Below are positions 3,682 through 28,726 of a stretch of DNA of 28,726 bases, piece after piece. A model generated the notes under the pieces. The model ran no database searches and was not told the origin of the DNA. It saw nothing but the letters and a program-made list of their open reading frames with translations. The position numbers were made by a program, and so were the translations under genes. The DNA comes from a virus, in IMG/VR virus record IMGVR_UViG_3300001750_000086, positions 1 through 28,726 of that record. The stretch is one strand, 5' to 3'. Each line of letters opens with the position of its first letter. Position 1 is the first letter of the stretch.

Positions 3682-5400
3682 ATGATTGAATTTCAAAGAA
3701 TAAAATGGAAAAATTTTTTGGGTACAGGGAATGTCTATACAGAGATAGAGCTTAATAATCATAAGAAGACTTTAATAATGGGGTTGAATGGTACAGGTAA
3801 ATCTACAATACTGGACGCTATATATTTTGCTCTTTTCGGCAAAGGATTTAGAAAGGTAACAAAAGACCAGTTGATTAACAATATAAATCAATCTAATACT
3901 AAAGTTGAATTGCAATTTAAGAAAGGTAAAACTTTTTATAAAATAGTAAGAGGGATAAAACCTAATAAATTTGATATATATAAAGATGATAGTTTAATAG
4001 ATAAATCAAGTAGTGTTGACCAGCAAGAATTTTTAGAAACATTTTTATTACATATAGATAAAAAAGCATTTTCTCAACTTATAATGTTGGGGTCAAGTTC
4101 TTTTATCTCTTTTATGAAATTGCCACCTAAAGATAAAAGAGATATGATAGAAGAAATATTAAATTTGAATGTATTTACAACGATGTTTAATACGCAAAAA
4201 GAAGAGTTGAATAAATTAAAAACTGAGTATGAAAAATTTAAGCAATTAAAAATCCGCATAAAAGATAAAATAAAATTACACAATCAGTTTATAGAAAAAA
4301 TTGAAAAAGATAATGAAGACGAAATATATCAATTAAAAGAAGATATTTTAAAAAAACAGAAAGAGATTGAGCCTATTTATACAGAAATTGATATATTTAA
4401 AAAACAAATTATAAATATAAAAAAAGTTAAAGAAAAATTGACAGAATTGTTGGGCTTACAAGTAAAATATCAATATCAACAGACAGATTTATCGAAAGAT
4501 ATAAGAGTAGAGGAAAAAAGTATTAAATTTTATAACTCTGAAAATAAATGTGAGGTGTGTGGACAGGTTATAGAAGAAAATTTTAAAAATAATAAAATTG
4601 CTGAGTCTATAAACAACATCGATATAGTAAAAAAGAAAAGCAATGTCTTGCAAGAAAAAGAAAATGAATTAAAAATAGAAGCAGGCAAATTAAGCATAGA
4701 ATATGAAGATTTAAAAGAGATTGAACAAAAATTAAATAAAAAGATACAAAGCATTGAATATATAAAAATGGATATTGAATACCAACAAAAGAATTTAATA
4801 AAATTAGAAACAAAATCAGAAACAACAGAAATATATGAAAAATTAAATAAATTAAAAGGCATTTTAAAAGAAATGGAAGCGAAAGAATTAGATTATGATG
4901 AGCAATTGTATATTAAAAAAGAAATTTATAGCTTACTTCAGAAAGGATTATTTAAACAAGTAGCACTAGAAAAATATTTAGCGATGTTAAATCAATTTAT
5001 CAATTATTATCTTAATAAGACGGAGATAAAATATAAATTAGAATTTAATAAATTTATGGAAATAGAGATATTAAATACTGGTTGTGAAAAATTAAATTAT
5101 AATTCTTTTTCTGAGGGGGAAAAGAAACGTGTGGATATTGCGGTGTTATTTGCTTTTAGAAACATTATAGAAATTAAAAATAATATGGTATCTAATTTAC
5201 TTGTTATAGATGAAGTATTAGACTCTGCTTTGGATAAAGAGGGGATAGACAATTTCTTTATGCTCGTAGAGTCTGTTTTAGCAGTGAGTAATATAAATTT
5301 GTTTATTATATCTCATATTAAAGATGATGACATTTTGGGTAAGTTTAATAATATTTTGGAATTTAAAACCGAGAGGGGTTTTAATATGTTAAAAAAATAA
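3682..5400 (+). CDS. 46: gp46-like recombination ATPase subunit (Rad50/SbcC family)
   Basis: A 572-residue SMC-type ATPase. Walker A is GLNGTGKS (34-41). Two long Lys/Glu-rich coiled-coil arms flank a zinc hook CEVC (290-293). The ABC signature SFSEGEKKR is at 475-483 and Walker B LLVIDEVLD at 506-514. Length is close to T4 gp46 (560). Family knowledge: it dimerises through the hook and uses ATP to control the gp47 nuclease. It begins two bases after gene 47. The catalytic Glu after the Walker B Asp is present (Glu511), so it should be active. Confidence 0.95.
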   Translation: MIEFQRIKWKNFLGTGNVYTEIELNNHKKTLIMGLNGTGKSTILDAIYFALFGKGFRKVTKDQLINNINQSNTKVELQFKKGKTFYKIVRGIKPNKFDIYKDDSLIDKSSSVDQQEFLETFLLHIDKKAFSQLIMLGSSSFISFMKLPPKDKRDMIEEILNLNVFTTMFNTQKEELNKLKTEYEKFKQLKIRIKDKIKLHNQFIEKIEKDNEDEIYQLKEDILKKQKEIEPIYTEIDIFKKQIINIKKVKEKLTELLGLQVKYQYQQTDLSKDIRVEEKSIKFYNSENKCEVCGQVIEENFKNNKIAESINNIDIVKKKSNVLQEKENELKIEAGKLSIEYEDLKEIEQKLNKKIQSIEYIKMDIEYQQKNLIKLETKSETTEIYEKLNKLKGILKEMEAKELDYDEQLYIKKEIYSLLQKGLFKQVALEKYLAMLNQFINYYLNKTEIKYKLEFNKFMEIEILNTGCEKLNYNSFSEGEKKRVDIAVLFAFRNIIEIKNNMVSNLLVIDEVLDSALDKEGIDNFFMLVESVLAVSNINLFIISHIKDDDILGKFNNILEFKTERGFNMLKK

Positions 5401-9579: not shown

Positions 9580-10040
9580 AACTTCAATCATCTACATTAT
9601 TAAAAAAAGATAATGAAAAAAATGGTACAATAAAAAAAAGTGCTTCACCTTTTGATATATTAAACAATATAAATAAAAAAATTGGTGGACATAATAAAGA
9701 GGTGGAGAATTATATACCCTTTTTAACAAACAGGTATTATTCATTTTTTTATGACACTTGTGAGTATGCTAATATAATGAACCAACATAGTAATTTAACT
9801 CCACAGCAACAATATGATTTTTATTATTTTTGTTTAGAAAGACGTACACAAGTTATAACAAAATGGTTTAAATGGAAAATTACAGATAAAATTAAACAAA
9901 TAGTGGATTATTATGGATATAATTTTGTAAGAAGTTTAGAGGTAGAAGATTTAATAGGGGAGGAGGATTTAAAAAAAATGGTAAATACTCAGGTATTTAA
10001 AAATAAGGGAGGTATTAGAAAAAATGGAACAAAAAACTAA
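9576..10040 (+). CDS. 62: gp62-like clamp loader small subunit
   Basis: 154 residues, start overlapping the gp44 stop by four bases. Matches the phage clamp loader A subunit family: SPFDILNNINKK, then YIPFLTNRYYSFFYDTCEYA, MNQHSNLTPQQQYDFYYF, TKWFKWK and IVDYYGYNF. Family knowledge: gp62 is the non-ATPase fifth subunit of the loader ring. The C-terminus overlaps the start of regA by 17 bp, so 44, 62 and regA form a tightly packed unit. T4 gp62 has 187 residues, and many phages have a shorter form like this one. Confidence 0.88.
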   Translation: MKLQSSTLLKKDNEKNGTIKKSASPFDILNNINKKIGGHNKEVENYIPFLTNRYYSFFYDTCEYANIMNQHSNLTPQQQYDFYYFCLERRTQVITKWFKWKITDKIKQIVDYYGYNFVRSLEVEDLIGEEDLKKMVNTQVFKNKGGIRKNGTKN

Positions 10041-10494
10041 TTTGGAAGGGAAAACTAATTTGGTGAAAACTAATTTGGAAAAACTTATTACAGAAACCTT
10101 TTGTGAAGTGGAATTAACATCAAACGAAAACTTTTTAAAGATTAAAGAAACATTGAGTCGAATGGGAATTAAAAAGAATATGAAATTATATCAGAGTTGT
10201 CATATTTTATTTAAACGTGGTAAATATTATATTGTCCATTTTAAAGAATTATTTGGTTTAGATGGCAAAGAGGTAAAAATTCAAGAGTATGATATAATGA
10301 GAAAGTTGTTGATTATAAAATTATTAGAAAAGTGGGGGTTGTTAATACCGAAAGATAAACAACAGATAGAAGAAGTTGGAGATAAATTACAAAAAATTAA
10401 CATAGATATTATACCCTTTAAGGAAAAAGATAATTATGAACTGATAGAGAAATATAATCTTGGCAAATATCATAAAAAGGTAGAGAATAAGTAG
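10024..10494 (+). CDS. regA: RegA-like translational repressor with repeat-bearing N-terminal extension and recoded C-terminus
   Basis: 156 residues against 122 in T4. The core is clear: NFLKIKETLSRMGIKKN, then LYQSCHILFKRGKYYIVHFKELF match T4 DFLKVKETLTRMGI and LYQSCHILQKKGLYYIVHFKEM. About 25 extra N-terminal residues contain KTNL three times, encoded by three 13-bp copies of AAAACTAATTTGG. RBS GGGAGG at 10007-10012 supports ATG 10024. Family knowledge: RegA binds start regions of early mRNAs, including clamp genes, and blocks translation. The last codons (YNLGKYHKKVENK) are repeated in diverged form after the TnpB element at 11646, where the frame continues into a longer tail; the tail seen here was probably supplied by that element. 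Confidence 0.9.
   Translation: MEQKTNLEGKTNLVKTNLEKLITETFCEVELTSNENFLKIKETLSRMGIKKNMKLYQSCHILFKRGKYYIVHFKELFGLDGKEVKIQEYDIMRKLLIIKLLEKWGLLIPKDKQQIEEVGDKLQKINIDIIPFKEKDNYELIEKYNLGKYHKKVENK
10033..10078 (+). repeat. regA: Three copies of AAAACTAATTTGG at the regA start
   Basis: Identical 13-mers at 10033-10045, 10051-10063 and 10066-10078, spaced 18 and 15 bp so the frame is kept (each encodes KTNL). They lie inside the first codons of regA. A repeated RNA site at the start of an RNA-binding autoregulator suggests an operator, but the repeat may simply be protein-level. Confidence 0.75.
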
Positions 10495-11643
10495 TATAAA
10501 AATGAGTTATTTTATAAATAGAATATATTAAGAGGTTTAATAAAGATGATAAGAAAGTCAACAATAAATCTTAAATTTGTTAATAAAGGTAAACTTGAAA
10601 AATTAAAGATAATTGCTGAAGAATATCAAAGAGTTGTTAATATATTTATAGATAGACTTTGGGAACAGCAACAATTTTCAGGCAGTTTTGTCAAAGATAC
10701 AACTGTTGATAGTTGGTTATCCGCTTGTTTAAAACAAACAGCTTCAAAACATGCTCTTTCTATTATTAAACCACAACGTAAGAAAAAGAAAAAATCTAAA
10801 CCTACATTAAATAAACTTATAATGGAACTTGATTCAAGAGTTATTAAAATTACACAAGATATAAATTCTTTTGATATTTGGGTTAAACTTTTAACTGTTA
10901 GTAATAAAATTGATAATAAGTTTGGTAAAAGATTTAGTCTTAATTTACCATCCAAAAAGCATATACATTTTAATAAATTTTTACAAGACGGATGGACAAT
11001 TAAAAAATCAATTAGATTAAGAATAAATGAAAAAGGTTATTTTGCTGATATAATTTTTGAAAAAGAAGCTCCCATAATAAAAACTAAAGGTAAACAAAAA
11101 GCTGTTGATATAGGATATAAAAAATTGATTGTAAGTTCAGATAAAGAATTTATAGGTGATAATAAAATTTATGAAAAAATATCAAGAAAGAAACAAGGTA
11201 GTAAGGCTTTTAAACGTGCTTTAATAGAACGTGATGAGCTAGTTAATTTATCATGTAAAAGTTTAGATTTAATAAATGTTAAAAGTTTATATGTCGAAGA
11301 TTTAAAAAATGTTAAACATAAATCTAAAGGCAAAATACATAAAAAGTTTAACAATCGACTTCAACGGTGGGTGTATTCTCAATGTTTGAGAAAGCTCGCT
11401 ATGTTGTGTGAAGAGAGTGGAATTTTATTTAAGAAAATCCCACCTCAATATACAAGTCAAAGATGTAGTTGTTGTGGAGAGATACATAAGAAAAGCAGAA
11501 AGAATGAGCTTTTTTGTTGTGTTTCTTGTAATTTTGAGAGTGATGCCGATTATAATGCTTCACTTAATATATTACACATGGGACAATATGATGTCCATGC
11601 CTTACAAAAGCCAATTCTATAAAATTTTATAGGAAGGGCAACC
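10454..11643 (+). mobile_element. TnpB element 1, inserted in the regA 3' end
   Basis: The proposed element runs from the recoded regA tail (matching the post-element sequence from 10454) through tnpB to the right-end hairpin and CAACC at 11639-11643. There is no tnpA transposase, so it could not move alone by the usual single-strand route. The left limit is inferred from where the duplicated regA codons begin and could be some bases off. Confidence 0.6.
10546..11622 (+). CDS. tnpB: TnpB-family RNA-guided nuclease (IS200/IS605 OrfB-like), copy 1
   Basis: 358 residues with the split RuvC site intact: VDIGYKKL (187-194, Asp188), VEDLKNVKH (250-258, Glu251) and DADYNASLNIL (333-343, Asp333/Asp335). 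A zinc ribbon with Cys307, Cys310, Cys325 and Cys328 lies before the last motif. Family knowledge: TnpB uses an omega-RNA read from the 3' end of its own element, whose guide is the sequence just beyond the right end, to cut matching DNA next to a short TAM. The gene sits 51 bp after regA, with AGAGG before ATG 10546 and a TATAAATA at 10513. A near relative (roughly 87% identity by hand count over the shared 170 residues) is at the right edge. Confidence 0.88.
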   Translation: MIRKSTINLKFVNKGKLEKLKIIAEEYQRVVNIFIDRLWEQQQFSGSFVKDTTVDSWLSACLKQTASKHALSIIKPQRKKKKKSKPTLNKLIMELDSRVIKITQDINSFDIWVKLLTVSNKIDNKFGKRFSLNLPSKKHIHFNKFLQDGWTIKKSIRLRINEKGYFADIIFEKEAPIIKTKGKQKAVDIGYKKLIVSSDKEFIGDNKIYEKISRKKQGSKAFKRALIERDELVNLSCKSLDLINVKSLYVEDLKNVKHKSKGKIHKKFNNRLQRWVYSQCLRKLAMLCEESGILFKKIPPQYTSQRCSCCGEIHKKSRKNELFCCVSCNFESDADYNASLNILHMGQYDVHALQKPIL

Positions 11644-11663
11644 ATAACTTGGGGAAATATCAT
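11617..11663 (+). ncRNA. Element 1 right end: omega-RNA 3' hairpin and guide
   Basis: Perfect 16-bp palindrome CTATAAAATTTTATAG (11617-11632), then GGAAGGG and CAACC (11639-11643). By family rule the roughly 20-base guide starts at 11644; that sequence encodes the regA C-terminus in codon register. The true RNA would begin further upstream within tnpB; only its 3' part is marked. Expression is inferred. Confidence 0.45.
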
Positions 11664-20393: not shown

Positions 20394-21407
20394 ATGAGAA
20401 GACCAAAAATAAATCTTGCTATTGTTGGAGCAACAGGAGCGGTAGGCAAAACATTTTTAACATTATTAGAAAAACGTAATTTCCCTGTTGATGGATTAAC
20501 ACTTTTTGCTTCGCCAAAATCTATCGGTAGAAAACTTGTTTATTGTGGTAAAGAATATGAAGTAAAATCTATAGAAAAGGATAGTTTTAAAAATATAGAT
20601 TTAGCATTTTTTTCCGCAGGAGCGACTATCAGTAAATATTACGCTCATAAGGCAGTTAATTCTGGTGCTATAGTGATTGACAATTCCAGTGCTTTTAGGT
20701 TGGATGAAGATGTACCTTTAATTATATCCGAAGTTAATCCTGAAAAAATATTTACACATACAAAGGGGATTATTGCAAATCCTAATTGTACCACTATAAT
20801 AATGTTGGTAGCCTTAAAACCTTTGTATGATTATAGTAGAATAAAAAGAGTTATTGTGTCAACCTATCAGGCTTCATCTGGAGCAGGCGAAAAGGGTTTA
20901 GCTGAACTTATAACACAAACGAAAAAATATGCGGAGGGGGTATCTTTTGGTAGGAAATATTTTCAACATCAATTATTATTTAATGTAATTCCACAAATTG
21001 ATGATTTTAAGAACAATGGATATACAAAAGAAGAAATGAAAATGTTTAATGAAACAAGGAAAATTTTAGGTGATGAAAATATTACGGTTAATGCGACTTG
21101 TGTTAGAGTACCTGTGCTAACAGCACATTCAGAGTCAATAACCATAGAAACTAAGAAGAAAATTTCACCAAAACTGGCAAGGGAAATATTTAAAAATTCT
21201 CCGGGAATTACTTTGCTAGATGACACAGTAAAATATTCAGAATATCCTACTCCATTGTTTGTAGCTGGAAAAGAAAATTGCTATGTGGGGAGGATACGGA
21301 AAGATTTATCCACAAAGAAAGGGTTATCATTTTGGGTGGTCGGAGACCAACTTATAAAGGGCGGAGCTTTGAACGCTATACAAATTGCTGAACATTTAAT
21401 AAAATAA
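20394..21407 (+). CDS. asd: Aspartate-semialdehyde dehydrogenase, catalytic residues intact
   Basis: 337 residues, full family length. NAD(P) site VGATGAVG (11-18), active site NPNCTT (130-135, Cys132), STYQASSGAG (156-165, Gln159), and RVPVLTAHSE (238-247, Arg238, His245). NPNC rather than NPGC separates it from ArgC. Family knowledge: reduces aspartyl phosphate to aspartate semialdehyde, the branch point to lysine/diaminopimelate, threonine and methionine. Why a phage needs it is unclear; supply of amino acids or wall precursors, or of a modified base precursor, are possible. It starts two bases after the preceding gene. A degenerate homologue lies at 15401. Confidence 0.92.
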   Translation: MRRPKINLAIVGATGAVGKTFLTLLEKRNFPVDGLTLFASPKSIGRKLVYCGKEYEVKSIEKDSFKNIDLAFFSAGATISKYYAHKAVNSGAIVIDNSSAFRLDEDVPLIISEVNPEKIFTHTKGIIANPNCTTIIMLVALKPLYDYSRIKRVIVSTYQASSGAGEKGLAELITQTKKYAEGVSFGRKYFQHQLLFNVIPQIDDFKNNGYTKEEMKMFNETRKILGDENITVNATCVRVPVLTAHSESITIETKKKISPKLAREIFKNSPGITLLDDTVKYSEYPTPLFVAGKENCYVGRIRKDLSTKKGLSFWVVGDQLIKGGALNAIQIAEHLIK

Positions 21408-24900: not shown

Positions 24901-25659
24901 ATGAGAATTAAATCAAGAAAAGAGCTTATATCCTACTGTCTTAAAAAACTTGGCGACCCTGTTATAGAAATAAATGTTGCTACAGAGCAAATTCAAGATA
25001 GAGTAGATGAAGCGTTACAGATAATTCAAGAGAGACATTTTGATTTTTCAACGAGAACGTATCTTTGTTATAAACTTACAGAAAAGGATATAAAAAATAA
25101 ATATATCTTGTTGGACAATACACATGGAGAAATACAAGCTATATTAAAGGTCTATATAGACTCAACACAACACATAGACTCAATATTCAATATAAACTAC
25201 CACTTAAATTTTAATGTGGCTTTTAGCGGTATGGGTTCACTTTCAAATATTAGTTATTATGTAATGAAGAAGCAACATTTAAGATTACTTGATGAGGTTT
25301 TTTCAACAACAGAACATATACCTATAAGGTGGGAAAAATATACGGATAAATTATTTATTGATATAAATTGGAGTGAAATTTTAAATGTAAAGGATAAAAT
25401 GATATTTATAGAATGTTTTAAATTGTTAGATGTAGAGAATACGCCTCAACTATGGGATGATATAACATTAAAGAGATACGCTACAGCTTTAATAAAGAAA
25501 CAATGGGGTGAAAATTTATCAAAATTTAATTTGCCATTGCCGGGTGATGCTGAATTGAATACAGAGCGATTGATAAGCGAATCGCAGGAAGAAATTGAAA
25601 AACTTGACGAGGAGCTAAATACAAAATATCAATTTCCATTGGATTTTCTCGTAGGGTAA
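24901..25659 (+). CDS. 13: gp13-like neck (head completion) protein
   Basis: 252 residues (T4 gp13: 309). The start SRKELISYCLKKLGDPVIEINVATEQIQDRVDEALQ-type segment corresponds to T4 [35 protein letters not shown], and the end RLISESQEEIEKLDEEL then FPLDFLVG follows T4 RLIEEARLEKEALREEL and FGILVG. Family knowledge: part of the neck that joins head and tail. Its last seven codons are duplicated after the TnpB element at 26862 with mostly different codons, so the tail here was probably supplied by that element. No gp14 is seen next to it. Confidence 0.85.
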   Translation: MRIKSRKELISYCLKKLGDPVIEINVATEQIQDRVDEALQIIQERHFDFSTRTYLCYKLTEKDIKNKYILLDNTHGEIQAILKVYIDSTQHIDSIFNINYHLNFNVAFSGMGSLSNISYYVMKKQHLRLLDEVFSTTEHIPIRWEKYTDKLFIDINWSEILNVKDKMIFIECFKLLDVENTPQLWDDITLKRYATALIKKQWGENLSKFNLPLPGDAELNTERLISESQEEIEKLDEELNTKYQFPLDFLVG

Positions 25660-26863
25660 ATAAATGTTAATTCAAAAAGGTTTTAAATATAAAATTTTAC
25701 CTACTAAAGAACAAGAAAAAGTTTTACTTCAATGTGGAGGGAATACTAGATTTTTATGGAATTATGTATTAAAGTTAAATCAGGATTATTATAAAGAAAC
25801 AGGTAAGTTTAAGTTTTGGTATGAATTAGCAATGTCTTTACCTGAACTTAAAGAAGAATATCCTTTCCTTAAAATATCTCATTCACAATCTTTAGTTGTA
25901 GTTGTTAGACAATTTGATAAAGCATTAAAAGACTCATTCAGAAAAAAGAAAGGTTTTCCAAAGTTTAAAAAGAAACTTAAATTAAATGATAGTTTTACCA
26001 GTCCTCAAGCATGGAGATTAGGAAAAGGTTTTATTTATATCCCTAAAGTTGGAGAAGTTAAATGGAAGAAAAGCAGGTCTTTGAGAGGAAAACCTAAATC
26101 TATTACTGTATCTCAAGATGGTAATAAATGGTATTGTTCTGTTTTATGCGAGTATGAAATTAAAGAAAAGAAGAAGAAAAATAAAAATATAGTTGGTTGT
26201 GATGTTGGAATAAAAGAGTTTGCCACATTATCAGATGAAACAGTAATAAACAATCCTAAAATTACTAATAAATATAAAGATAAATTAACAAAAGAACAAA
26301 GAAGTTTAAGTAAAAAGAAAAAGGGAGGGAAAAACAACTTTAAGCAGAGATTAAAAGTAAGAAAAGTACATAACAAAATAAGAGACAGTCGTATGGATTT
26401 TCTACACAAAACATCTAGCTCGATAGCCAAGAACTATGACGGAATTGTGGTAGAAGATTTGAATGTTGTAGGGATGTTAAAAAATCACTGTCTTGCTAAA
26501 GCTATAAGTGATGTTTCATGGTTTGAGTTTAACAGACAACTTAAATATAAGTGTTTGTGGGGTTTTAAACACTATATTAAAATTGATAGATTCTTTCCAA
26601 GTTCAAAAACTTGTTCAAGATGTGGTTGTATTCAAGATATGCCTTTAAGCAAGAGAACTTTTAATTGTCCTGATTGTGGTTTAAAAATGGATAGAGACCT
26701 AAATTCTAGTATTAACATAAAAGAACAAGGTATAAATACGCTAGGGTATAGCGGAATTAACGCTTGTGGAGATGTTCTGTTAGGAACGTCAATGAAGCAA
26801 GAAAAAGAATGCTTGGATAACCAAGCAAATGCCACAAGATTATAGTCTTGTGGAGTACCAACC
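25636..26863 (+). mobile_element. TnpB element 2, inserted in the gene 13 3' end
   Basis: Runs from the recoded gp13 tail (from about 25636) through tnpB to the right-end hairpin and CAACC at 26859-26863. The left boundary is inferred from the start of the duplicated codons. There is no tnpA and no classical left end: only four bases separate the gp13 stop from the tnpB start. Confidence 0.65.
25664..26845 (+). CDS. tnpB: TnpB-family RNA-guided nuclease (IS200/IS605 OrfB-like), copy 2
   Basis: 393 residues with all key residues: VGCDVGIKEF (177-186, Asp180), VVEDLNVVGML (262-272, Glu264), zinc ribbon Cys317, Cys320, Cys335, Cys338, and MDRDLNSSINI (342-352, Asp343/Asp345). The N-terminus (YKILPTKEQEKVLLQC) is the common TnpB start. 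Distinct from copy 1: SRCG/CPDCGL ribbon and a different N-terminus, so a separate lineage. Its ATG is four bases after the gp13 stop, and its stop codon lies in the loop of the right-end hairpin. Family knowledge as for copy 1. Confidence 0.9.
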   Translation: MLIQKGFKYKILPTKEQEKVLLQCGGNTRFLWNYVLKLNQDYYKETGKFKFWYELAMSLPELKEEYPFLKISHSQSLVVVVRQFDKALKDSFRKKKGFPKFKKKLKLNDSFTSPQAWRLGKGFIYIPKVGEVKWKKSRSLRGKPKSITVSQDGNKWYCSVLCEYEIKEKKKKNKNIVGCDVGIKEFATLSDETVINNPKITNKYKDKLTKEQRSLSKKKKGGKNNFKQRLKVRKVHNKIRDSRMDFLHKTSSSIAKNYDGIVVEDLNVVGMLKNHCLAKAISDVSWFEFNRQLKYKCLWGFKHYIKIDRFFPSSKTCSRCGCIQDMPLSKRTFNCPDCGLKMDRDLNSSINIKEQGINTLGYSGINACGDVLLGTSMKQEKECLDNQANATRL

Positions 26864-26883
26864 GTTAGATTTTATTGTGGGAT
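26832..26883 (+). ncRNA. Element 2 right end: omega-RNA 3' hairpin and guide
   Basis: CCACAAGA pairs perfectly with TCTTGTGG around TTATAG (26832-26853), then AGTAC and CAACC (26859-26863). The guide by family rule begins at 26864 and encodes the gp13 C-terminus. Only the 3' part of the RNA is marked; the 5' end would be inside tnpB. Confidence 0.5.
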
Positions 26884-26885
26884 AA
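26862..26885 (+). pseudogene. 13: Residual gene 13 3' tail after the element
   Basis: In frame it reads PLDFIVG and TAA, against PLDFLVG and TAA in intact gp13. Codons for Pro, Leu, Val and Gly all differ synonymously (CCG, TTA, GTG, GGA against CCA, TTG, GTA, GGG); ATT replaces CTC (Ile for Leu). It has no start and is best read as the original gp13 end cut off by insertion. The first two bases of the Pro codon come from CAACC. Confidence 0.75.
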
Positions 26886-26927
26886 TTTTAAAATAGGGTA
26901 GTTTTAAAATAGGGTAGTTTTAAATAG
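26886..26927 (+). repeat. 16-bp tandem repeat, two and a half copies
   Basis: TTTTAAAATAGGGTAG at 26886-26901 and 26902-26917, and a partial third (TTTTAAATAG) to 26927. Lies between the residual gp13 stop and peptide deformylase. No function evident. Confidence 0.8.
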
Positions 26928-26952
26928 AATAATAATAAAAAGGTGTTTTATA

Positions 26953-27403: not shown

Positions 27404-28216
27404 ATGAAAAGTATAAAAGAATTTTTAGAGCAAAGTGTAAGTTTTTTAGGATTATCACAAAAAAGATTTGCGGAGAGACATATCGAATTTTTAAAAGAAA
27501 AAGAAAATAATCCTTATACAAGAGAAGTTGATATAAAAGATGTTGTTGGTAATCCAGATAAATATGTAAATACTTCGGGGGTTATAGCTGGAGAAGTTAT
27601 AGAATTAGGTGTACATAAAACTCCGGGAATTGGATTATATGTACAATCAAGTTTAGAGCCATTTTTTGTATTACTAGGTGAACAAGGTTTTATTGATATA
27701 GACGGAATGAATAGAAGATATATTCAAATAATAGATGATAATGGAGAAAAGACAGAAGATAAAATATATATAGGCGATTATATTGTAGCTTGTGGGGATT
27801 TTAATAAATTATTTTATACATCTTGTGCTATGTCAAAAGTACATTATATTCAAGTATTTAAGGCTGATTTTATACATCATAAATTTGCAGAAAGTGAATT
27901 TACAATAACAAAATCTTTGCCATTAGTACCAGATTATCAATATTATAAATGGGAGATAGGGGAAGATAGCATAACTAGTGGGTTTATAAATCAACATATA
28001 CTGTTTTCAGGTATGGATAATAATACTCCAACGGATATTGTAGGTTGTAAATTTTTTATATTTAAGTTTGAAACACAGAAAAAGGGATTTGGTGTTATAT
28101 CTCTTGATTTTAATAGATATGATAAAAATGGAAAATTAGTTGAATTTATAGGCTCACATGAATATTTAATTTTTGTAACAATGCCAATGGTTGCTTTATC
28201 CTATGCTAGTTCATAG
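27404..28216 (+). CDS. Unknown protein, C-terminus probably interrupted by TnpB element 3
   Basis: 270 residues behind GAGAGGTG. The middle is beta-rich with many Gly and Asp (TSGVIAGEVIELGV, then GIGLYVQSSLEPFFVLLG and YIGDYIVACGDF), which suggests an OB-like or virion protein, but no family is recognised. The last eight residues (VALSYASS) are encoded by the right end of element 3, beginning at GGTTGC 28189, so the natural C-terminus is probably missing or altered. The original end would be on the far side of the element, outside this window. Starts four bases after deformylase. Confidence 0.65.
   Translation: MKSIKEFLEQSVSFLGLSQKRFAERHIEFLKEKENNPYTREVDIKDVVGNPDKYVNTSGVIAGEVIELGVHKTPGIGLYVQSSLEPFFVLLGEQGFIDIDGMNRRYIQIIDDNGEKTEDKIYIGDYIVACGDFNKLFYTSCAMSKVHYIQVFKADFIHHKFAESEFTITKSLPLVPDYQYYKWEIGEDSITSGFINQHILFSGMDNNTPTDIVGCKFFIFKFETQKKGFGVISLDFNRYDKNGKLVEFIGSHEYLIFVTMPMVALSYASS
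28169..28216 (-). ncRNA. Element 3 right end: omega-RNA 3' hairpin and guide (minus strand)
   Basis: On the minus strand CTATG pairs with CATAG around the six-base loop AACTAG (28201-28216), followed by GATAAAG and CAACC (28189-28193). The guide would start at 28188 and run into the antisense of the 27404 gene. Same plan as element 1: TTCTAT, eight bases, ATAGGA, then GCAACC. Confidence 0.45.
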
Positions 28217-28726
28217 AATAGGCTGTAAAGCATGGACACCATATCGTCCCATGTGTAAAATATTGAGTGAAGCATTATAATCCGCATCACTCTCAAAATT
28301 ACAAGAGATACACTTAAAAAGCTCATTCTTTCTGCTTTTTTTATGTATCTCTCCGCAACAACTACATCTTTGACTTGTATATTGAGGTGGAATTTTCTTA
28401 AATAAAATTCCTTCCTCTTCACACAACATAGCGAGCTTCTGCAAAACTTTTGGATACACCCACCGTTGAAGTTGATGATTAAACTTTTTATGTATTTTAC
28501 CTTTGGATTTATGTTTAACATTTTTTAAATCTTCTGCAAAAAGTTCTTTAACATTTGTTAAATCTAAAGCCTTACAAGAAATATTAACTAACTCATTTCT
28601 TTCTATCAATGCTCTTTTAAATGCTTTACTTCCTTGTTTCTTTCTTGATATTTTTTCATAAATTTTATTATCACCTATAAATTCACCACTAGAACTTACA
28701 ATCAATTTTTTATATCCTATATCTAT
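28189..28726 (-). mobile_element. TnpB element 3 (partial, runs off right edge)
   Basis: Right end at 28189 with hairpin and CAACC, tnpB reading leftward, left end beyond the window. Inserted in the opposite direction to the host gene, unlike elements 1 and 2. Confidence 0.65.
28211..28726 (-). CDS. tnpB: TnpB-family RNA-guided nuclease, copy 3 (N-terminus outside window)
   Basis: The frame is open to the right edge and shows the C-terminal 172 residues. It begins with IDIGYKKLIVSS (the first RuvC Asp), then AEDLKNVKHKS with the catalytic Glu, the zinc ribbon SQRCSCCG...CISCN, and DADYNASLNIL. Roughly 87% identical to copy 1 by hand count, with single changes such as Cys to Lys next to the zinc ribbon and Lys to Gln near the end. 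All active-site residues visible here are kept, so it may be active. Confidence 0.85.
   Translation of the reverse strand: MDIGYKKLIVSSSGEFIGDNKIYEKISRKKQGSKAFKRALIERNELVNISCKALDLTNVKELFAEDLKNVKHKSKGKIHKKFNHQLQRWVYPKVLQKLAMLCEEEGILFKKIPPQYTSQRCSCCGEIHKKSRKNELFKCISCNFESDADYNASLNILHMGRYGVHALQPIL

What the first reader, a model, noticed from the sequence alone, without database searches (positions are those of the whole stretch)
25636..26885. TnpB element between a complete gp13 and a second, recoded copy of the gp13 C-terminus
Seen directly: gp13 ends PLDFLVG-stop, and immediately after the TnpB right end the frame reads PLDFIVG-stop. In the nucleotides, five of the seven codons differ, four synonymously (CCA/CCG, TTG/TTA, GTA/GTG, GGG/GGA) and one conservatively (CTC/ATT). 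This cannot be a target-site duplication, which would be identical, nor chance, because register and stop match. By TnpB rules the guide is the sequence just after the right end, which is this tail. The inference: the element is a homing device. It cuts uninterrupted gene 13 in rivals, inserts by recombination, and carries a recoded tail that keeps gp13 whole and resists self-cutting (6 mismatches in the first 22 guide positions).
Basis: partly seen in the sequence, partly recalled or inferred. Interest (0 to 1): 0.93.

Follow-up and report, generated by a model that had tools for sequence, protein, structure and literature searches.

The report
Phage TnpB carrying target-gene repair tail
In several uncultured phages an RNA-guided DNA-cutting gene (TnpB) sits at the very spot its guide RNA would cut in an important phage gene and comes with a differently spelled replacement for the cut-off gene end, the same layout that engineers use in 'home-and-rescue' gene drives.

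Summary
gp13 (head-tail adaptor) ends PLDFLVG-stop; TnpB follows 4 nt later. Exactly where its guide should begin, the DNA reads PLDFIVG-stop, with 6 of 24 nt changed. Chance is about 1e-10 per register, though an unconstrained flank comparison alone would not convince (2% of mismatched pairs). It is not alone: a distantly related TnpB in the same window does this to RegA, and three in other IMG/VR contigs to a tail tube, a portal and a terminase gene (5 of 62 testable loci; scores 40-152, next best 28). A sixth (L081) does it to a gene start. Catalytic residues are intact in the five compared; TnpB1's guide-RNA scaffold covaries; transposase is absent or reduced where examined. Best reading: the upstream copy is the recoded rescue, the downstream copy the native target and guide template, i.e. 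a natural home-and-rescue homing element. Not shown: cutting, homing, any empty allele, and whether recoding was selected or came from a diverged allele. L081 (one guide mismatch, likely TAM intact) and L116 (exact self-match) speak against recoding always being the protection.

The parts
24901..25659 (+). gp13, neck / head-tail adaptor, complete, target gene of TnpB1
   Evidence: PHROG 211, E 3.2e-35; Y and P near the C-terminus invariant in 9 aligned relatives, tails listed
25636..25659 (+). recoded replacement (rescue) of the gp13 tail: PLDFLVG-stop
   Evidence: 6 of 24 nt differ from the guide-side copy
25664..26845 (+). TnpB1, 393 aa, IS200/IS605-type RNA-guided nuclease; no tnpA, no left end
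   Evidence: D180, E264, D343/D345 and four Zn-ribbon Cys conserved
26732..26861 (+). guide-RNA (omega-RNA) scaffold, overlapping the end of tnpB and ending at the right end GTACCAA
   Evidence: five helices, 98.2% of cells paired, 12 of 33 pairs with changes on both sides against 4.6 in shuffles
26862..26885 (+). native gp13 tail remnant PLDFIVG-stop; first 16-20 nt are the predicted guide
   Evidence: boundary; codon comparison
10024..10494 (+). RegA translation repressor, complete, target gene of TnpB2
   Evidence: PHROG 242, E 9.6e-43
10456..10494 (+). recoded RegA tail NLGKYHKKVENK-stop
10507..10545 (+). leader shared with the L087 element, containing TATAAATA (10513-10520), the motif I recall as the T4 late promoter
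   Evidence: alignment; motif positions (23 in window, 14 expected, so suggestive only)
10546..11622 (+). TnpB2, 358 aa, of the clade whose relatives L093 and L095 lie behind a resolvase-type (IS607-like) tnpA; no tnpA here
   Evidence: Cas12f1-like_TNB; 85% identical to the L087 TnpB; resolvase domain in L093, L095
11646..11699 (+). native RegA tail remnant NLGKYHKKSENIRITGV-stop; first 16-20 nt are the predicted guide
   Evidence: right end AACCAT ends at 11645 by alignment; reading
28211..28705 (-). TnpB3 (cut by the window end), 87% identical to TnpB2 over its length; right end at 28187, predicted guide 28186-28167, antisense to the 3' part of ORF 27404-28216
   Evidence: whether a rescue exists lies beyond the window

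Best explanation
TnpB1 (and TnpB2) is a natural 'home-and-rescue' element. Shown: the phage carries, between the gene body and a second gene end, a unit made of (i) a differently spelled end of the target gene with its stop, (ii) an intact tnpB, (iii) a guide-RNA scaffold (tested for TnpB1), placed exactly at the point where the guide begins; what follows reads as the severed native gene end, which templates the guide. Inferred: the TnpB-guide complex finds this native end in co-infecting phages that have the uninterrupted gene and cuts it. Phage recombination repairs the break from the TnpB-bearing genome, using the gene body on one side and the native tail on the other. The whole unit is copied in, and the gene stays whole because the element brings its own end. 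The changed spelling stops the complex from cutting the rescue copy, and should also make loss of TnpB by recombination between the two copies rarer. Transposase and left end are no longer needed and have been lost. So TnpB has changed from a transposon-retention factor into a homing endonuclease aimed at conserved phage genes.
For: Recurrence: gp13, RegA, tail tube (L087), portal (L088) and large terminase (L119) tails score 41, 57, 152, 40 and 77; the next best of 62 loci scores 28; 6, 0, 0, 6 and 0 of 6508 mismatched pairs do as well. Homology starts at the independently aligned right end in W1, W2, L087 and L088; L119's right end was not placed. Differences are synonymous far beyond chance: 20 against 6 in W1, W2 (its stop codon left out) and L087, expected synonymous share 0.18, p about 1e-10; adding L088 and L119 (15 codons before a one-codon gap) gives 24 against 11 plus one changed stop codon, p not recalculated. 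So the divergence did not arise in an untranslated remnant. Rescue copies mismatch the 20-nt guide at [3,6,13,15,18], [3,4,6,9], [7,10,13,16,19] and [2,3] in W1, W2, L087 and L088. PMC12803034 (passages) reports that mismatches in the first 1-4 nt abolish unwinding by Ymu1 TnpB and that 12-16 bp are required for efficient cutting by Dra2 TnpB. Nuclease residues intact in all five; W1's scaffold covaries. Transposase: none between gene and tnpB in W1 and W2; in L088 about 45 residues that match the C-termini of the L093/L095 resolvases by eye. In L087 the downstream copy still overlaps the next gene's start, marking it as native.
Against: No cutting, no homing and no empty allele was seen; the sequences are IMG/VR contigs. 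Synonymous differences are also what recombination between two diverged alleles would leave, without selection for self-protection. In L087, where length allows a test, changes are only mildly denser in the guide (5 of 20 nt against 9 of 73). The sequence before the rescue copies is not obviously altered in the IS607-type cases (ATAT or GTAT before W2, L087 and L088; TAM unknown). L081's replacement differs from its guide only at position 1 and keeps TTAT; L116's guide has an exact match inside its own intact gene. The pattern is rare: 5 of 62 testable loci among 106 scanned, 0 of the 16 loci fetched one by one from phage records. Two of the five are in one genome, and L087's TnpB is 85% identical to TnpB2. 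The test looked only at same-strand genes, so the common orientation is partly by construction. Unconstrained comparisons rate W1 (2.1% of mismatched pairs) and L088 (0.9%) as weak, and some loci I do not count scored as high there (L214 45, L220 42, L250 40).
Confidence: 0.6

Rival explanations
1. Scar of mosaic recombination without function: an IS200/IS605 or IS607 element once jumped into the gene end, and the gene was later restored by recombination with a diverged phage whose complete gene end landed just before tnpB, deleting left end and tnpA. The duplicate and its synonymous differences record the other allele; TnpB merely persists.
For: Synonymous differences fit allelic divergence. 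tnpA remnants in L088 and, by eye, L090 show erosion from the left. L090 has no tail copy (score 32, 17% of mismatched pairs). L081 keeps a near-perfect target.
Against: Needs a non-homologous join close behind the stop in five cases (4 to 125 nt). TnpB stays intact with, for W1, its scaffold although the transposase is lost. Nearly the same TnpB2 module with a shared leader sits at two genes, each with its own fitting replacement.
Confidence: 0.27
2. Co-conversion scar of an ordinary free-standing homing endonuclease: TnpB homes like T4 seg/mob genes, and the altered gene end is just the flanking donor sequence dragged along, not a rescue made for the purpose.
For: T4 free-standing endonucleases co-convert flanks and cause marker exclusion (PMC2988022, passages). 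HEGs cluster near terminase, structural and replication genes (PMC10448857, passages).
Against: Nothing in those passages describes a second, severed gene end behind the endonuclease gene. Here that copy sits at the guide position and marks the insertion point.
Confidence: 0.08
3. IStron-like or intron-like insertion spliced out of the mRNA so that gp13 uses the downstream end.
For: TnpB is known from IStrons (recalled; PMC4227781 seen only in the listing).
Against: No group I or II intron in the window, L087 or L119 at Rfam gathering scores; L088's one group I intron lies 2.3 kb downstream of its TnpB stop. Only 4 nt separate the gp13 stop from tnpB. The upstream copy is already complete with stop.
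Confidence: 0.01
4. Chance similarity or assembly artefact.
For: The gp13 copy is short and at DNA level 18 of 24 nt does not stand out; unconstrained protein comparison 2.1%. Contigs are from IMG/VR, reads not seen.
Against: Calculated about 1e-10 per register; five cases in four contigs, the window and three others.
Confidence: 0.02

Closest known systems
IS200/IS605 and IS607 TnpB (OMEGA nucleases)
   Same: Protein family, scaffold position, guide position right after the right end; gene-drive-like spread is reported in plasmids (PMC11870625, passages)
   Different: No transposase or left end in W1 and W2; the element carries a replacement for the end of the gene it interrupts
Synthetic home-and-rescue gene drive (HomeR, PMC7968924; outline with abstract and section 7 read)
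   Same: Guide to an essential gene, insertion at the cut site, recoded remainder of the gene on one homology arm (22 or 27 residues there; about 7 to 31 here)
   Different: Natural, phage-borne, nuclease and guide in one locus; function inferred, not shown
T4 free-standing homing endonucleases (SegF, SegG, MobE)
   Same: Selfish nuclease gene beside phage genes, spread by break repair in mixed infections (PMC2988022, passages)
   Different: Cleavage sites hundreds to thousands of bp from the nuclease gene; no severed second gene end and no built-in rescue in what I read
Intron endonuclease gp210 of phage PhiPA3 (PMC11620839, abstract and outline)
   Same: Phage homing nuclease harming a co-infecting rival
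   Different: Intron-encoded; no recoded gene end in what I read
Prophage e14 / phage 21 integration into icd (recalled, no call)
   Same: An inserted element supplies an alternative 3' end of the host gene
   Different: Integrase-mediated; no guide and no nuclease target in the displaced end

Membership tests
TnpB nuclease family | RuvC catalytic D/E/D and Zn-ribbon cysteines | tested here: met
   Invariant D180, E264, D343/D345, C317, C320, C335, C338 in W1, W2, L087, L088, L119; PF01385 and PF07282 above cut-off for TnpB1, PF07282 for TnpB2. Which residues are catalytic is recalled from ISDra2 TnpB.
TnpB nuclease family | Structured guide-RNA scaffold ending at the right end | tested here: met
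   W1 with four relatives: 98.2% cells paired, 12 pairs with two-sided changes, 0 of 500 shuffles as high. Not tested by covariation for TnpB2 (single-sequence folds only).
Intact IS200/IS605 or IS607 element | tnpA and left end present | tested here: not met
   W1: tnpB starts 4 nt after the gp13 stop; the relatives L081, L082, L100, L101, L103, L105 have tnpA sequence upstream (IS200-type domain in L081 and L082). W2: 51 nt between RegA and tnpB. L088: about 45 residues of a resolvase C-terminus by eye, no Pfam hit. L119: 37-nt gap.
Homing endonuclease element | Cuts the empty allele and is copied in by break repair | not testable with these tools
   No empty allele found; no experiment possible
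Home-and-rescue drive (as a design) | Recoded remainder of the target gene on the body side of the insertion, keeping the reading frame complete | tested here: met
   Five 3' cases; one 5' case, L081
Home-and-rescue drive (as a design) | Rescue resistant to the element's own guide | tested here: inconclusive
   At least 2 guide mismatches in W1, W2, L087, L088, but only one in L081; exact self-match in L116; cutting not measured
TldR (nuclease-dead TnpB regulators) | Lost catalytic residues | tested here: not met
   Catalytic residues present; definition recalled, start of the abstract of PMC13418256 seen in listing
IStron | Group I intron around TnpB | tested here: not met
   No Rfam intron in window, L087 or L119; the one in L088 lies away from TnpB

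The most novel reading that the evidence does not exclude
Phages have evolved RNA-guided home-and-rescue gene drives: transposase-free TnpB elements that cut conserved genes (neck, RegA, tail tube, portal, terminase) of rivals at the C-terminal coding end and carry a synonymously recoded end that keeps the gene whole and escapes the guide. The trick arose in at least two TnpB lineages (IS605-type and IS607-type) and can be mounted on new genes with a new rescue each time.
Probability: 0.5. Interest if true: 0.93.

Novelty: new variant of a known kind. Interest (0 to 1): 0.86.

Why it matters
If true, nature built the architecture that gene-drive engineers later designed: a programmable nuclease parked in a conserved gene with a recoded rescue. 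It would explain how TnpB can sit in genes that a phage needs without introns or inteins, how it can live without a transposase, and give a sequence signature (gene end / TnpB / right end / second gene end) for finding RNA-guided homing elements. It also makes the old question of how homing elements avoid cutting their own carrier testable: the native and recoded ends, and so the predicted cut and uncut substrates, can be read from the genome.

Tried and rejected
Empty alleles: IMG/VR scans gave at best about 40% (gp13), 46% (gp44 next to regA), only itself and a 23% hit (L087 tail tube) and nothing (ORF 27404-28216). Phage-record searches gave at best 54% for RegA, 29% for the terminase, 27% for the portal; L087 DNA matched only at its TnpB; plasmids at most 29% for the terminase.

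Spread of the pattern: 16 loci fetched from phage records (scanned) and 51 further TnpB places from TnpB-bearing records gave no case I call clear; L214, L220 and L250 scored 45, 42 and 40 (0.4, 0.8 and 1.2% of mismatched pairs) and were judged short chance matches without a gene end, not studied further. phrog_506 hit 2 of 50 records, and those 2 were included because they were known to carry TnpB.

Target-site duplication, group I intron and nuclease-dead regulator were tested and rejected. TAM for IS607-type elements could not be fixed. For the IS605 type, TTAT stands where the left ends of six relatives become alike (L082, L100-L103, L105; whether TTAT is flank or element is by analogy) and before L081's gene-side copy; transfer to W1 is inference. 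A first attempt at scaffold alignments used wrong end points and was redone. Denser changes in the guide of L087 are only a trend. TATAAATA as a late promoter is suggestive only.

Counts: one search used 37 IMG/VR loci plus W1 and W2. Loci left out: same contigs again (L104, L106, L109), near-copies judged by match statistics only (L091, L115, L129), partial or end-truncated hits (L084, L118, L122, L127). Near-copies such as L097/L098 and L117/L120/L121/L126 were kept. W3 (cut) and L251/L252 were not scored. Of 106 loci, 44 had no same-strand gene ending near TnpB and dropped out of the test. Literature listings were capped at 7 to 25 rows.
Full report
What is there. The window is a fragment of a T4-like phage: DNA polymerase, UvsX, clamp loader, RegA and gp13 match the corresponding PHROGs. 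gp13 ends YQF-PLDFLVG-stop at 25659. TnpB1 begins at 25664. After its right end, at 26862, the DNA reads PLDFIVG-stop.

Where the guide begins. I placed the right end without using the gp13 similarity. In seven related IS200/IS605 insertions the sequence is alike up to ...GTGGAGTGTCAC and then differs. W1's matching end is ...GTGGAGTACCAA, at 26861. The second gp13 tail starts at the next base. The last 130 nt before it fold into stem-loops whose pairs covary among W1 and four relatives (98.2% of cells paired; 12 of 33 pairs with changes on both sides, shuffles 4.6; slid versions at most 44% paired). TnpB1 matches solved TnpB structures (8bf8 and 8h1j, E 1.6e-58), and the RuvC and zinc residues are present.

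It is a pattern. Within the same window TnpB2 (10546-11622; 23% identical to TnpB1; its clade relatives L093 and L095 lie behind a resolvase-type tnpA) sits 51 nt behind RegA (PHROG 242), which ends NLGKYHKKVENK-stop. Directly after TnpB2's right end the DNA reads NLGKYHKKSENIRITGV-stop. A TnpB 85% identical to TnpB2 in another contig (L087) sits behind a tail-tube gene (PHROG 45) and is followed by 84 of 99 identical nt of that gene's end, with 11 synonymous and 3 other codon changes in 31 codons. There the downstream copy runs on into the next gene's start, so it is most likely the native end. L088 shows it for a portal gene (MLSNNREE-stop / MKSNNREE-stop; PHROG 156), with about 45 residues resembling the end of the L093/L095 resolvases still lying between gene and tnpB. 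L119 shows it for a 629-aa large terminase (PHROG 2 and Pfam Terminase_6N) with an IS605-type TnpB (GGISMKSQFANPTMRKRNII... / GGIMLNSKFANPAMRKRNIL...).

Statistics. Over 106 TnpB loci, 62 have a same-strand gene ending near TnpB. Comparing the last 30 codons plus stop with the 130 nt behind TnpB, the five cases score 152, 77, 57, 41 and 40 and the next best 28. Of 6508 mismatched pairs 0, 0, 0, 6 and 6 do as well; at about 40 one expects roughly 0.06 such loci among 62 (my arithmetic). Less constrained comparisons are weaker for the short cases: W1 2.1% and L088 0.9% of mismatched pairs; a search reading both strands kept L087, L119, L089, W2 and L081 on top, above the null maximum of 39, while L220, L088, L214 and L250 follow at 40-42 and W1 is not in the top ten. 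As direct DNA repeats, L087, L089, L119, L116, L088, W2 and L081 are among the first nine of 105 loci, the other two being L165 and L153 (for all but L087 one of 315 mismatched pairs scores as high).

What the differences say. In W1, W2 (stop left out) and L087, 20 changed codons are synonymous and 6 are not; random changes would give 18% synonymous (p about 1e-10). With L088 and L119 the count is 24 to 11, plus a changed stop in L088. An untranslated remnant decaying on its own would not look like this; the divergence happened while both versions were under protein selection, or in the translated upstream copy. Against the 20-nt guide the rescue copies mismatch at 5, 4, 5 and 2 positions in W1, W2, L087 and L088, with at least one of the first seven in each. 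This fits self-protection. So would plain allelic divergence, and I cannot separate the two without uninterrupted relatives.

A mirror case and two that do not fit neatly. In L081 (71% identical TnpB1 relative) the insertion lies antisense at the start of a gene (ORF 3843-4619, minus; no Pfam or PHROG hit). The start region is present twice, the left end seen in relatives is missing, and the tnpA frame is shortened (Y1_Tnp matched from profile position 34, against 12 in L082). The gene-side copy is preceded by TTAT, which also stands at the left ends of six relatives, so probably the TAM. But this copy differs from the guide only at position 1. In L116 the DNA behind the right end is a piece of a replication-type gene (PHROG DNA-binding and DnaD-like hits) that follows complete just downstream, with an exact guide match inside it (no TTAT before it). 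In L089 the leader of the next gene is copied before tnpB. So replacement of severed gene parts seems recurrent, whereas recoding as protection is not proven.

How it most likely works. The phage has one unit = recoded gene end + tnpB + scaffold, exactly at the guide boundary, between the gene body and the native gene end. Cutting of an uninterrupted copy by TnpB and repair from this genome would copy in the unit and leave the gene whole. This is the plan of the synthetic HomeR drive, whose left homology arm carries a recoded stretch of 22 or 27 residues after the cut site (PMC7968924 section 7). Functional steps are inferred.

Literature. Nine searches of the held library, most with capped listings, showed no title or abstract start that describes a natural recoded rescue beside TnpB. 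TnpB as a homing-like or drive-like nuclease is known (PMC11870625 passages; PMC12803034 passages). T4 free-standing homing endonucleases and HEGs beside essential genes are known (PMC2988022, PMC10448857 passages; the held text of the latter has no 'TnpB', 'recod' or 'synonymous'). Subscription papers and preprints outside the library were not searched.

Verdict. Observation confirmed. The homing reading is strengthened by recurrence and corrected in direction (upstream copy = rescue, downstream copy = native target), and it remains untested in function.

Noticed in passing
window 28187-28726 (-) and 27404-28216 (+): TnpB3, a near relative of TnpB2, is inserted antisense so that its right end supplies the last residues (VALSYASS-stop) of ORF 27404-28216; a rescue copy, if any, lies beyond the window.
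   Followed up: partly
L089 around 3836-3866, 3960-4003, 5071-5134: 38 of 39 nt of the next gene's leader are copied directly before the TnpB start codon, and the guide sequence also occurs inverted upstream with one mismatch.
   Followed up: partly
L116 around 3815-3846, 5201-5320, 5868: A fragment of a replication-type gene follows the TnpB right end, the complete gene follows that, and the gene's start is also present upstream of TnpB; the guide has an exact match in the complete gene.
   Followed up: partly
window 26880-26930: Repeated unit around TTTTAAAATAGGGTAG directly behind the gp13 tail remnant, not explained.
   Followed up: no
window 11090-11071 (-): TnpB1's guide matches 17 of 20 nt inside the TnpB2 gene; I estimate about 0.06 such matches by chance, so probably accidental.
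   Followed up: no
window 20394-21407: A semialdehyde dehydrogenase gene (Pfam PF01118 and PF02774), probably aspartate-semialdehyde dehydrogenase, in a T4-like phage.
   Followed up: partly
L088 5998-6358: A group I intron (Rfam RF00028, 95.9 bits) in the same contig piece as the portal-gene TnpB.
   Followed up: no
   Followed up: no
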